Assembly (NCBI GenBank): GCA_015056885.1
Contig: SVFL01000007.1
Location: 1-64,000, forward strand
DNA length: 64,000 nucleotides
From: Lachnospiraceae bacterium
Lineage (GTDB): Bacteria > Bacillota > Clostridia > Lachnospirales > Lachnospiraceae
Reading direction: 5' to 3'
The translations under genes were made by a program, and so were the position numbers. This document shows, one piece after another, positions 40,844-52,380 of the stretch (positions are counted from its first letter, which is position 1; each line of letters starts with the position of its first letter). Under the pieces are notes generated by a model, which had not been told where the DNA came from, ran no database searches, and worked only from the letters and a program-made list of their open reading frames with translations.

Positions 40844-42022
40844 TTACTTACAGCCAAACAGTTCTGCTAATTTTTCTTCACGTAATCTTGCGCCGATGAC
40901 GCAGATTTTGCCGGTCACTTCAGGTTTGCCGGTTCTGATTTCATGCTCTTCGGGAACATAATCATAATAAATCCAAGTTCCGTCTTCAGCAGGAACCATG
41001 CCCTTGGCACGCAAAATATCACCATACCAACCACTGTCAAGTTCCTCAAGAATGTGCTCAATCTGCTCCTTGGTGTAGGTATTGGGAGTCTCTACGCCCC
41101 AGCTTCCGAACACTTCGTCTGCATGATGATGGTGATGGTCATGACAACCGCATGAACAGTTCTCACCATGTTCATGATGATGCTCATGATCATGTTCATG
41201 GTGATGGTGCTCGTGACAGCCACATTCCTCATCATGGTCATGGTGGTGATGGTGCTCGTGGCAGCCACATTCCTCATCATGTTCATGATGGTGGTGATGG
41301 TGCTCGTGGTCATGACCACCGCCTCCGCACTCCTCGCCATGCTCATGGTGATGCTCATGATCATGATGATGGTGATGATGCTCGTGCACGCTCTCCAACA
41401 TCTCCTTCATCATATCCTCTAACTTGTCCGCACCCTCAATAGTCTCAAGCACGTCCTTGCCATCCAGCTGTGCCAGAGGTGTTGTGATAATTGTAGCCTT
41501 CTCGTTATGTTCTCTGATAAGCTCTACTGCCAGATTAATCTTATCCTGAGAAAGCTTGTCTGTTCTGCTCAGAATAATGGTTCCGGCATGCTCAATCTGA
41601 TTGATAAAAAACTCACCGAAATTCTTAATATACATCTTACACTTAGATGCATCTACAACAGCAACTGCACTGTTTACCTGTACATCCAATTCAGATGCCA
41701 CATTTTCAACTGCCTTCAACACATCAGAAAGTTTGCCTACACCTGAGGGCTCAATCAACACACGCTCAGGTGCATAAGTATCAATAACTTCCTTCAAAGA
41801 AGTGCCGAAATCGCCTACCAGGGAACAGCAAATACATCCGGAATTCATCTCTTTGATTTCAATTCCCGCCTCTTTAAGGAATCCGCCGTCGATACCGATT
41901 TCGCCAAACTCATTCTCAATCAGAACAGTCTTCGAGCCATCCAGCGCCTCCTTCAACAATTTCTTAATCAGAGTGGTCTTACCCGCTCCTAAAAATCCGC
42001 TTACTACATCAATCTTTGTCAT
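40844..42022 (-). CDS. CobW/COG0523 GTPase with a His/Cys-rich metal-binding insert
   Basis: VVSGFLGAGKTTLIKKLL, SGCICCSL motif, and a long HEHHHHHHDHEHHH...CGCHEHHHH region. Confidence 0.93.
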   Translation of the reverse strand: MTKIDVVSGFLGAGKTTLIKKLLKEALDGSKTVLIENEFGEIGIDGGFLKEAGIEIKEMNSGCICCSLVGDFGTSLKEVIDTYAPERVLIEPSGVGKLSDVLKAVENVASELDVQVNSAVAVVDASKCKMYIKNFGEFFINQIEHAGTIILSRTDKLSQDKINLAVELIREHNEKATIITTPLAQLDGKDVLETIEGADKLEDMMKEMLESVHEHHHHHHDHEHHHEHGEECGGGGHDHEHHHHHHEHDEECGCHEHHHHHDHDEECGCHEHHHHEHDHEHHHEHGENCSCGCHDHHHHHADEVFGSWGVETPNTYTKEQIEHILEELDSGWYGDILRAKGMVPAEDGTWIYYDYVPEEHEIRTGKPEVTGKICVIGARLREEKLAELFGCK

Positions 42023-42119: not shown

Positions 42120-43379
42120 TCATCGACATACCTTCTCTCCCTTTGACCGATACGCATAATACTCATGCACCAGACTCCGATACCCCCACTCCTTCAAGGT
42201 CTCATAACGAACCCGAAAATTCCCTTTGTAATGACGGCCCGTCACCGTATACCGGATATATTGTTGCATATAAGTATCAATTTCCTTAAGCCCTACATCT
42301 GTAGTCAAATTAGGGAAAAACCACCGCTCCCAGGTAAACTCATCCATAAGCATTTCTCCGGATTCCATGTGTTTCTCCGGTTCCCTACATCCGTAAAATT
42401 TGGCATTCATTGCACGAATAAAACCGATTGCAGCCTTCTCAGAAGACAAGTTTTTCTTTCGCCGCCAGCGCATCAAAGCGTTAGCCTTGCGCTTAATTCG
42501 GGCCTTGGTCTTTCGAATGGTGTTGGGTGACAAATCAATCACTCCGTCTCTATAAGAAAATCCCAAAAAAGAGAATGCCTCTCCCGGCGCAGTAACCATC
42601 ACCTTGTCAGGGTTTACTTCAAGCCCAAGTTTTGCAACCTGTTCCCGCAAAACACTCTCATAACACTTTAAATCCTCATAAGTATCCGCAAAAATCAAAA
42701 TATCATCCGAATACCGATAATAGCTTACCCCCAGTTTTTCAAAATAGTAATCTGTCTCCGACAAATATACATTTGCAAAGAAGGGAGAAATCGGTGTTCC
42801 TGCCATAGCTCCATGTTCTGCCACCATCTCCTCGCCTTCATAAATCACACGTTTTTCCCTAAGAATCCTTTCAAAAATCCGGTAAAGTCCGACATCTGTT
42901 CGTTCAACAAATTTTAATTTTTCCAGCAAAATTTCAACATCAATAGAATTGAAATAATCACTGATATCTATTTTCAAACAATATTGCCTGGAAATTCGCC
43001 GGTCTCCTCGAAGTCGCCTCAGTGCATCTTTTACACCATAGCCCCGTCGGAACGCATAACAATTTTGACAAAAAATATCATTATATCGAAATAGATGATA
43101 AGCTATGAACTTTAGCAAAATGCCCTCATCACCATCAAAAGAATAAACCACCCTTTTTTTCCGGCTACCCTCTTTGCTAATCACACTTTTCTTGGGGAAC
43201 TCCATCGGATATTCGCCCCTTTGCCACATCTCACACAATTTTATATAAGCTTTACGCCCGATAAAATCTCGAATTTTCTGTTCCTCCGTCTGCGACAAAT
43301 GCTGGTGCTCTATTTTATAATCCAAGAAAGAAAGCCATGCTTCTTCACAGCAGGCTTCCTCCAAAATACTCTTCATCAT
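42120..43379 (-). CDS. Stand-alone reverse transcriptase (RNA-directed DNA polymerase), class unassigned
   Basis: CYAFRRGYGVKDAL, LKIDISDYFNSID, AGTPISPFFANVYLSETD, YRYSDDILIFA, FSFLGFSY RT motifs; start MMKSILEE at 43379 with AGGAG RBS. Confidence 0.9.
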   Translation of the reverse strand: MMKSILEEACCEEAWLSFLDYKIEHQHLSQTEEQKIRDFIGRKAYIKLCEMWQRGEYPMEFPKKSVISKEGSRKKRVVYSFDGDEGILLKFIAYHLFRYNDIFCQNCYAFRRGYGVKDALRRLRGDRRISRQYCLKIDISDYFNSIDVEILLEKLKFVERTDVGLYRIFERILREKRVIYEGEEMVAEHGAMAGTPISPFFANVYLSETDYYFEKLGVSYYRYSDDILIFADTYEDLKCYESVLREQVAKLGLEVNPDKVMVTAPGEAFSFLGFSYRDGVIDLSPNTIRKTKARIKRKANALMRWRRKKNLSSEKAAIGFIRAMNAKFYGCREPEKHMESGEMLMDEFTWERWFFPNLTTDVGLKEIDTYMQQYIRYTVTGRHYKGNFRVRYETLKEWGYRSLVHEYYAYRSKGEKVCR

Positions 43380-43400: not shown

Positions 43401-43431
43401 CATGAGAAACATGCTTTGCATGTTCCTCATG
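43401..43431 (-). other. 14-bp hairpin just upstream of the RT ribosome-binding site
   Basis: CATGAGAAACATGC-TTT-GCATGTTCCTCATG (+ strand), one mismatch. Confidence 0.75.
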
Positions 43432-43490
43432 ATTTCGCGGTGCTCCTCGAATACTCATATAAACATGGCATTCTCATCGCTACTCGCGAA

Positions 43491-43654
43491 AAAAAGAAAG
43501 AGAAATAACTTTGAAGTAATCAAAGCCGTGCTTGATTACCACCGGACTGAACATGTTTCCGTTGCCCGCAAAACCTACCGAAATCTACTCCGGCAATATG
43601 AAACATGCTTTATCCCCCACGGGCGCAACCAATGTTGCATTTCTCTTTCTTTTT
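43491..43654 (-). ncRNA. Candidate RT-associated structured ncRNA bounded by a 16-bp inverted repeat
   Basis: AAAAAGAAAGAGAAAT (43491-43506) versus ATTTCTCTTTCTTTTT (43639-43654), perfect inverted repeat; inner stem-loops GCAAC/GTTGC, CATGTTTC/GAAACATG, GTAATCAA/TTGATTAC. Confidence 0.5.
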
Positions 43655-43660
43655 GTCAAA

Positions 43661-44188
43661 TTATATATGTACAATCTCTTTCAACTGTTCTCTGATATAT
43701 CCGGTGCGATTCGGAAGTCTTGTGATAAAATGCACATACCCCACACTCTGGCGACCGCAAGCCTCTTTAGCCAAACGAGTGCGCTTACACCAATAATCAT
43801 CGGGATAATCCAGAATAATAATCATCGCTACAGGTATGCCATTATTGTATAATCCATAAGTATAATCCAACGCGCCTGCCTCGGCCCCCATTTCGGAGGA
43901 ACTGATATTCTTGCGAATCTCAATTCTGTCGCCCCATTCCTCAGAAACCACCTTTTCAATTCTCCGTTCCACTACAGCCACTTCTCCGCAACAGTCCTCC
44001 TCTGCTTCGTCCACACTGCTTGCAGCTGCTTTTGCTGTACTATTTGCACTTACGGTTGCAGAACTGCTATTTTTATTTTCTCTGACAGAATCCCTAATAT
44101 TATCTGTTACAGAATCTACCACCTCATCCAAAACTCCCGAAACAATTTTACGTGCTTCTCTTTTTAACAAATTGTTTAAAAAACCCAT
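43661..44188 (-). CDS. Hypothetical protein upstream of the RT leader
   Basis: 175 aa ORF with good start (GGAGAAATTATGGG); C-terminal conserved-looking domain LDYTYGLYNNGIPVAMIIILDYPDDYWCKRTRLAKEAC. Confidence 0.75.
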   Translation of the reverse strand: MGFLNNLLKREARKIVSGVLDEVVDSVTDNIRDSVRENKNSSSATVSANSTAKAAASSVDEAEEDCCGEVAVVERRIEKVVSEEWGDRIEIRKNISSSEMGAEAGALDYTYGLYNNGIPVAMIIILDYPDDYWCKRTRLAKEACGRQSVGYVHFITRLPNRTGYIREQLKEIVHI

Positions 44189-44253: not shown

Positions 44254-44282
44254 ATTGTACCAAAAACAGCAAGCAGTGTCAA
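44254..44282 (-). promoter_or_regulatory. Near-consensus sigma-A promoter for the hypothetical-RT unit
   Basis: Minus strand TTGACA (44277-44282), 17-nt spacer, TACAAT (44254-44259). Confidence 0.75.
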
Positions 44283-52159: not shown

Positions 52160-52380
52160 TTTCGCGAGCTTTGAGCCATGCTGCCCGGCGTCTAAAAATG
52201 CTCGTCGGGTGCTTGCACACGTAAGAGCATTTTTAGACGCCGGACAATACGGCGAATGCCGCGAAACCGAGCAAGCTTGCCTTGCGAGGTTTCGGCATGG
52301 CTCTGGCTGCCGGGGCGGCATGGCTCTGGCTGCCGGTGGCATGGCGAAGCACGCTGACTCGGCATGGCTTTAGCGACCGC
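52160..52380. repeat. GC-rich structured intergenic element
   Basis: 19-bp perfect inverted repeat 52185-52203/52225-52243 and two tandem copies of GGCATGGCTCTGGCTGCCGG (52294-52313, 52317-52336). Confidence 0.75.

What the first reader, a model, noticed from the sequence alone, without database searches (positions are those of the whole stretch)
43491..43654. Perfect 16-bp inverted repeat bracketing a folded 132-nt RNA upstream of the RT
AAAAAGAAAGAGAAAT and ATTTCTCTTTCTTTTT are exact reverse complements separated by 132 nt. The enclosed transcript strand contains three further stem-loops: GCAAC-ATTG-GTTGC, CATGTTTC...GAAACATG enclosing TTGCC...GGCAA, and GTAATCAA...TTGATTAC. A closing stem around inner stem-loops directly upstream of an RT is the architecture of retron a1/a2-bounded msr-msd and of other RT template RNAs. 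The arms are low-complexity purine/pyrimidine, so covariation is needed.
Basis: partly seen in the sequence, partly recalled or inferred. Interest (0 to 1): 0.78.

Follow-up and report, generated by a model that had tools for sequence, protein, structure and literature searches.

The report
UG26 reverse transcriptase's partner RNA (RT-5)
The inverted repeat is the conserved closing stem of a folded, pseudoknotted RNA (Rfam family RT-5) that sits, usually with a small partner gene, in front of almost every copy of a little-studied presumed anti-phage reverse transcriptase (UG26), and it most likely serves as that enzyme's scaffold and copying template; it is not a retron.

Summary
The two 16-nt arms are exact reverse complements 132 nt apart; such repeats are rare by chance (0.05 expected per window).

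On the RT strand the enclosed RNA is Rfam RT-5 (RF03026, 56.1 bits, gathering 45.7). In 45 homologues, and in 80 further loci found with a new covariance model, the closing stem shows compensatory changes at 14 of 16 and 15 of 16 pairs.

The RT is UG26 (PADLOC, E=6e-159), not a retron RT. In 299 genomes all 31 RT-5 carriers have UG26. Upstream lies a conserved partner (PADLOC RTasCOG2852) with a PD-(D/E)XK-like fold and no conserved catalytic residues. The partner-RNA-RT cassette is missing from the same site in 15 congeners.

Best reading: ncRNA of a Class 2 UG (DRT-like) system, RT scaffold and probable template. Template identity, priming and defence are inferred; a telomerase-like A-B-A' test was not significant. 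The parts are catalogued; their assignment, the full fold and the mechanism appear new.

The parts
43639..43654 (-). P1 5' strand (AAAAAGAAAGAGAAAU), closing stem of the RNA
   Evidence: exact complement of 43491-43506; own-versus-cross pairing z=14.9; 14/16 pairs covary in A1, 15/16 in A4
43491..43506 (-). P1 3' strand (AUUUCUCUUUCUUUUU), running into a T7 tract at 43489-43495, so the closing stem may also act as a terminator (inference)
   Evidence: a run of 4 T at the P1 3' end in 97/120 loci
43625..43638 (-). P2 hairpin GCAAC-AUUG-GUUGC directly after P1
   Evidence: 5/5 pairs covary in A4, 94.6% paired; z=8.8
43619..43624 (-). pseudoknot 5' strand GCCCGU
   Evidence: 99.6% of cells paired, all six pairs with two-sided change; 99.4% in 80 further loci, 51 two-sided cells against 9.9 shuffled
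43564..43569 (-). pseudoknot 3' strand GCGGGC, in the P4 apical loop
43612..43616 (-). P3 5' strand (pairs with 43544-43548)
43544..43548 (-). P3 3' strand
43600..43608 (-). P4 5' strand GCAUGUUUC
   Evidence: 8/9 pairs covary, 94.7% paired
43551..43560 (-). P4 3' strand GGAAACAUGU
43516..43539 (-). P5 hairpin GUAAUCAA...UUGAUUAC, stem-loop 5' of the candidate template loop
   Evidence: hairpin kept with changed sequence in homologues (by eye); hairpin of the Rfam model
43507..43515 (-). T-loop UUCAAAGUU between P5 and P1: candidate template (inferred)
   Evidence: UUCAA 82/123, UUUAA 30/123 immediately 3' of P5; same position as the template loop of DRT10 RNAs
43502..43628 (-). Rfam RT-5 (RF03026) core match
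   Evidence: 56.1 bits, gathering 45.7, E=3.3e-8
42120..43376 (-). UG26 reverse transcriptase, 418 aa, YSDD active site
   Evidence: PADLOC RT_UG26 E=5.8e-159; catalytic D137, D224, D225 invariant in 63 homologues; AF2 mean pLDDT 93.7
43661..44188 (-). partner gene, 175 aa, RTasCOG2852 family; PD-(D/E)XK-like fold without conserved catalytic residues
   Evidence: family found next to the RNA in 37/48 loci and upstream of it in 65/80 further loci; PADLOC RTasCOG2852 in 22/31 members; model
44254..44282 (-). probable promoter of the partner-RNA-RT cassette (TTGACA-17-TACAAT with TG)
   Evidence: 11/12 consensus match; consensus match only

Best explanation
The inverted repeat is the closing stem (P1) of a roughly 164-nt non-coding RNA of Rfam family RT-5. 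It is the dedicated RNA partner of the UG26 reverse transcriptase encoded just downstream. RNA, RT and an upstream RTasCOG2852 protein form one cassette, a Class 2 'unknown group' (DRT-like, presumably anti-phage) system. Shown here: the fold (P1, P2, pseudoknot, P3, P4, P5) by comparison of homologues; near-obligate linkage of RNA and RT across phyla; intact RT active site; a conserved partner; absence of the whole cassette from the same site in relatives. Inferred: the RT binds this RNA as a scaffold and copies the single-stranded loop between P5 and P1 (UUCAAAGUU) into short or repetitive cDNA, possibly starting from a C-terminal tyrosine; the cDNA or the RT-RNA state, perhaps with the partner, gives phage defence.
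For: RT-5 match above the gathering score. UG26 match. All 31 RT-5 genomes among 299 have UG26, and 31 of 33 UG26 genomes have RT-5. In 29 of the first 30 loci an RT frame follows the RNA; the other is at a contig end. A covariance model from 45 loci finds the RNA in 80 of 80 further UG26 loci, including Bacteroidales and an Acidobacteriota MAG. Covariation: 310 two-sided cells against 119 shuffled, 611 against 191, pseudoknot 51 against 9.9. Partner linkage. Empty site in 15 congeners. RT model resembles GsI-IIC, G2L4, DRT9 and DRT2 RTs. Two UG17 (DRT10-type) loci from the same bacterial family show the same layout: closing stem, hairpin near its top, 3' stem-loop, then a loop. Characterised Class 2 RTs copy a template within their ncRNA (PMC12632851, PMC12483538, PMC13174585).
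Against: No expression, RNA-binding, cDNA or phage data. The A-B-A' realignment pattern of DRT10 is not specifically supported (own 72%, other loci's A 75%, shuffled 43%). The C-terminal tyrosines are not universal (WW, FW and FH occur). The model finds no convincing match in the two DRT10-type loci, so common descent of the RNAs is not shown. Two UG26-like RTs lack the RNA.
Confidence: 0.78

Rival explanations
1. Retron msr-msd: the inverted repeat is a1/a2 and the RT makes branched msDNA.
For: Closing stem around stem-loops directly upstream of an RT.
Against: RT is UG26 by a wide margin (527 bits; next best 120, a generic RT model; no retron model in the shown top 25). No NAxxH motif in the protein sequence. 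The enclosed RNA is RT-5 with a conserved pseudoknot. Closest known layout is a DRT10 ncRNA.
Confidence: 0.03
2. The RNA is a cis-regulatory leader of the RT operon (riboswitch-like or attenuator): the P1 stem plus T tract is a regulated terminator and the RNA never acts as a template.
For: It lies between partner and RT, and P1 is followed by a T run. In the Bacteroidota loci examined the RNA 3' end abuts the RT start.
Against: Found with this RT family in every genome that has it. In L084 the partner gene lies between RNA and RT. Structured RNAs beside other Class 2 UG RTs are known templates (PMC12039810, PMC12483538).
Confidence: 0.12
3. The RNA is only a structural or oligomerisation scaffold for the RT, which synthesises untemplated DNA like Abi or Class 1 RTs.
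For: A-B-A' not specifically supported. DRT9 RNA is scaffold as well as template (PMC12483538, PMC12489045).
Against: Class 2 UG RTs studied so far copy their ncRNA (PMC13174585). The T-loop sequence next to P5 is conserved.
Confidence: 0.1

Closest known systems
Rfam RF03026, RT-5 RNA
   Same: Window RNA scores above the gathering threshold, same strand and position upstream of an RT.
   Different: The 104-position Rfam model omits the P1 closing stem and the P2 5' strand; the structure line printed by cmscan shows no pseudoknot (the curated seed could not be checked). Here it is tied to UG26 and to a partner protein.
UG26 RT and RTasCOG2852 (PADLOC 'DRT')
   Same: RT profile E=5.8e-159; partner family RTasCOG2852.
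   Different: The PADLOC models are protein-only and carry no ncRNA; the window's partner copy itself matches only at E=0.016.
DRT10 (UG17) ncRNA system
   Same: Similar size (125-137 nt against 164), long closing stem, hairpin near its top, 3' stem-loop followed by a loop before the closing strand.
   Different: Partner there is a SLATT protein; the template there shows A-B-A' repeats, not established here; the RT-5 model finds no convincing match in DRT10-type loci.
DRT9 (UG28) and DRT2 (UG2)
   Same: ncRNA upstream of a stand-alone RT; DRT2 RNA is pseudoknotted (PMC12039810); the RT models align.
   Different: RNA lengths 188 and 280 nt, different folds; the poly-U template (DRT9) and the 120-nt gene-forming template (DRT2) are absent here.

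Membership tests
Rfam RT-5 (RF03026) | covariance model score at or above gathering | tested here: met
   56.1 against 45.7 bits
UG26 reverse transcriptase | RT profile match and intact catalytic aspartates | tested here: met
   E=5.8e-159; D137, D224, D225 invariant
Class 2 UG (DRT-like) system | conserved structured ncRNA next to a single-domain RT | tested here: met
Class 2 UG (DRT-like) system | RNA-templated cDNA | not testable with these tools
   needs cDNA sequencing
Class 2 UG (DRT-like) system | anti-phage activity | not testable with these tools
   only indirect: patchy distribution (11/31 congeners), empty site, PADLOC listing
DRT10 | UG17 RT with SLATT partner | tested here: not met
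   UG26 outranks UG17 (527 against 107 bits); partner is RTasCOG2852
DRT10 | A-B-A' template in the loop 3' of a stem-loop | tested here: inconclusive
   loop present; A/A' match not above cross control
Retron | retron-type RT | tested here: not met
   no NAxxH motif in the sequence
Retron | 2'-5' branched msDNA | not testable with these tools
   needs DNA analysis

The most novel reading that the evidence does not exclude
UG26 is an uncharacterised Class 2 antiviral RT system in which a pseudoknotted RT-5 RNA templates a short or tandem-repeat cDNA from a conserved UU(C/U)AA loop, with a catalytically dead nuclease-fold protein as sensor or effector: a three-component design unlike DRT2, DRT9 and DRT10.
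Probability: 0.45. Interest if true: 0.75.

Novelty: new member of a known kind. Interest (0 to 1): 0.55.

Why it matters
It ties an orphan Rfam RNA family to a specific RT group and a partner gene, and gives a complete fold with a pseudoknot and a concrete template prediction. That makes one of the unstudied UG RTs, relatives of the telomerase-like DRT10, directly testable. By profile, UG26 RTs also match solved telomerase RT at E=2.9e-7.

Tried and rejected
Retron assignment: rejected on RT family and RNA family. Inner hairpin TTGCC/GGCAA: rejected, it conflicts with the pseudoknot and is not conserved. A-B-A' telomerase-like realignment: tested on 123 loops, not above the cross-sequence control, so left as a hypothesis. 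Partner as active nuclease: no conserved catalytic D/E/K. Partner thought new at first: later found as PADLOC RTasCOG2852. Single-sequence scan of genome contigs found nothing; the alignment query worked. Viral contigs held only two weak, distant matches, and plasmids only weak matches to RTs mostly annotated as group II introns. UG27 search in the family found nothing. The source paper of the RT RNA motifs (DOI 10.1093/nar/gkx699, named from memory) and the UG/Abi classification paper (10.1093/nar/gkac467) are not in the library, so whether they already link RT-5 to UG26 could not be checked. Literature searches for RT-5, RF03026, COG2852 with RT, and UG26 found no experimental study.

Full report
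What is there. The two arms are exact reverse complements at the stated coordinates, 132 nt apart. Perfect inverted repeats of this length and spacing are rare by chance: the window holds this pair and one palindrome near 52185, against 0.05 per shuffled window. Read on the minus strand, which carries the RT, the element folds well (z=-5.6) and is Rfam RT-5.

Covariation. I collected 48 loci from genomes of the same family and order and aligned 45 non-redundant ones (A1). A six-pair pseudoknot, GCCCGU (43624-43619) with GCGGGC (43569-43564), is formed in 99.6% of cells, with two-sided changes at all six pairs. A covariance model built from A1, run on 80 named UG26 loci, finds the RNA in all 80 at E of 0.0022 or better, with 611 two-sided cells against 191 shuffled; that alignment was fitted to the structure. 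The pseudoknot was not part of the fitted structure and is still formed in 99.4% of cells there.

The enzyme. The downstream RT is UG26 (PADLOC), with invariant catalytic residues and a confident AF2 model nearest to group II-type RTs, DRT9 and DRT2. Its profile also reaches telomerase RTs at E=2.9e-7. Among the same 299 genomes, RT-5 occurs in 31 and UG26 in 33. Every RT-5 genome has UG26; the two UG26-like outliers (G193, G293) lack the RNA.

The partner. Directly upstream of the RNA lies a 175-aa gene (43661-44188). Its family is present in 37 of 48 loci and upstream of the RNA in 65 of 80 further loci in several phyla. PADLOC knows it as RTasCOG2852. The model shows helix-strand-strand-strand-helix-strand-helix, the PD-(D/E)XK arrangement; Foldseek matches are weak and point to restriction enzymes, VSR, DUF2726 and VRR-NUC proteins. 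Catalytic residues are not conserved. It starts with a conserved MG(F/L)xxxL stretch, possibly an amphipathic helix (inference).

A cassette. In 15 congeners rnpB and cobW lie near each other, with a trypsin-like gene between them in 14 of 15, and no UG26 RT or partner there. In the window the partner-RNA-RT block sits between the trypsin-like gene and cobW. Eleven of 31 genomes of the genus, the window's own included, carry a UG26 RT; in the others it lies on a different contig from cobW. A strong consensus promoter lies upstream of the partner, and TATAAT-like hexamers are enriched just before P1 across loci, so the RNA may also have its own start.

How it probably works. In DRT10 the template lies in a loop directly 3' of a stem-loop and is copied repeatedly by realignment between two short repeats; priming is from a C-terminal residue (PMC12632851). 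DRT9 and DRT3a copy a template at an analogous place (PMC12483538, PMC13174585). Two UG17 (DRT10-type) loci fetched here from the same bacterial family (L217, L218) show a similar plan to RT-5: long closing stem, hairpin near its top, 3' stem-loop, then a loop. In RT-5 that loop is UUCAAAGUU in the window and begins UUCAA or UUUAA in 112 of 123 loci. I therefore infer that it is the template. The repeat-realignment pattern could not be shown: the match of A to A' is no better than with other loci's A, because the closing stem's U run explains it. A C-terminal LVxEYY is largely conserved and may prime, as in DRT9 (PMC12483538, PMC12489045), but exceptions exist.

Limits. All functional steps are inferred. 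The papers that defined the RT RNA motifs and the UG groups were not in the library, so an earlier link between RT-5 and UG26 cannot be excluded.

Noticed in passing
window 43401-43431: Near-perfect 13-bp hairpin (CATGAGGAACATGCAAAGCATGTTTCTCATG on the minus strand) between the RNA and the RT start; role unknown.
   Followed up: no
window 52185-52243: The only other perfect inverted repeat of at least 16 bp with a short spacer in the window.
   Followed up: no
L076:5656-9471: UG26-like RT in one open frame with a long N-terminal part that looks like a radical-SAM protein (1271 aa); lacks RT-5 and has altered motifs (GGLGGVPL instead of MAGTP). Could be a true fusion.
   Followed up: partly
L077:7732-8949: Second UG26-like outlier RT without RT-5, with a similar altered motif (GILGGNPL).
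   Followed up: partly
L069, L084, L081: UG26 copies with an in-frame stop reported (G175:C12, G234:C31) or a truncated RT match (G241), suggesting decay.
   Followed up: no
L098:2945-5575 and L070:8998-9876: Partner domain fused behind a zinc-ribbon-like N-terminus (876 and 293 aa).
   Followed up: no
window 40844-42022: CobW-type GTPase with a long His/Asp/Glu-rich insert.
   Followed up: no
L217, L218: UG17 (DRT10-type) loci in the same family whose ncRNA has no Rfam match; L218 shows a clear GUAU-CGCACUUA-GUAU repeat in its template loop.
   Followed up: partly
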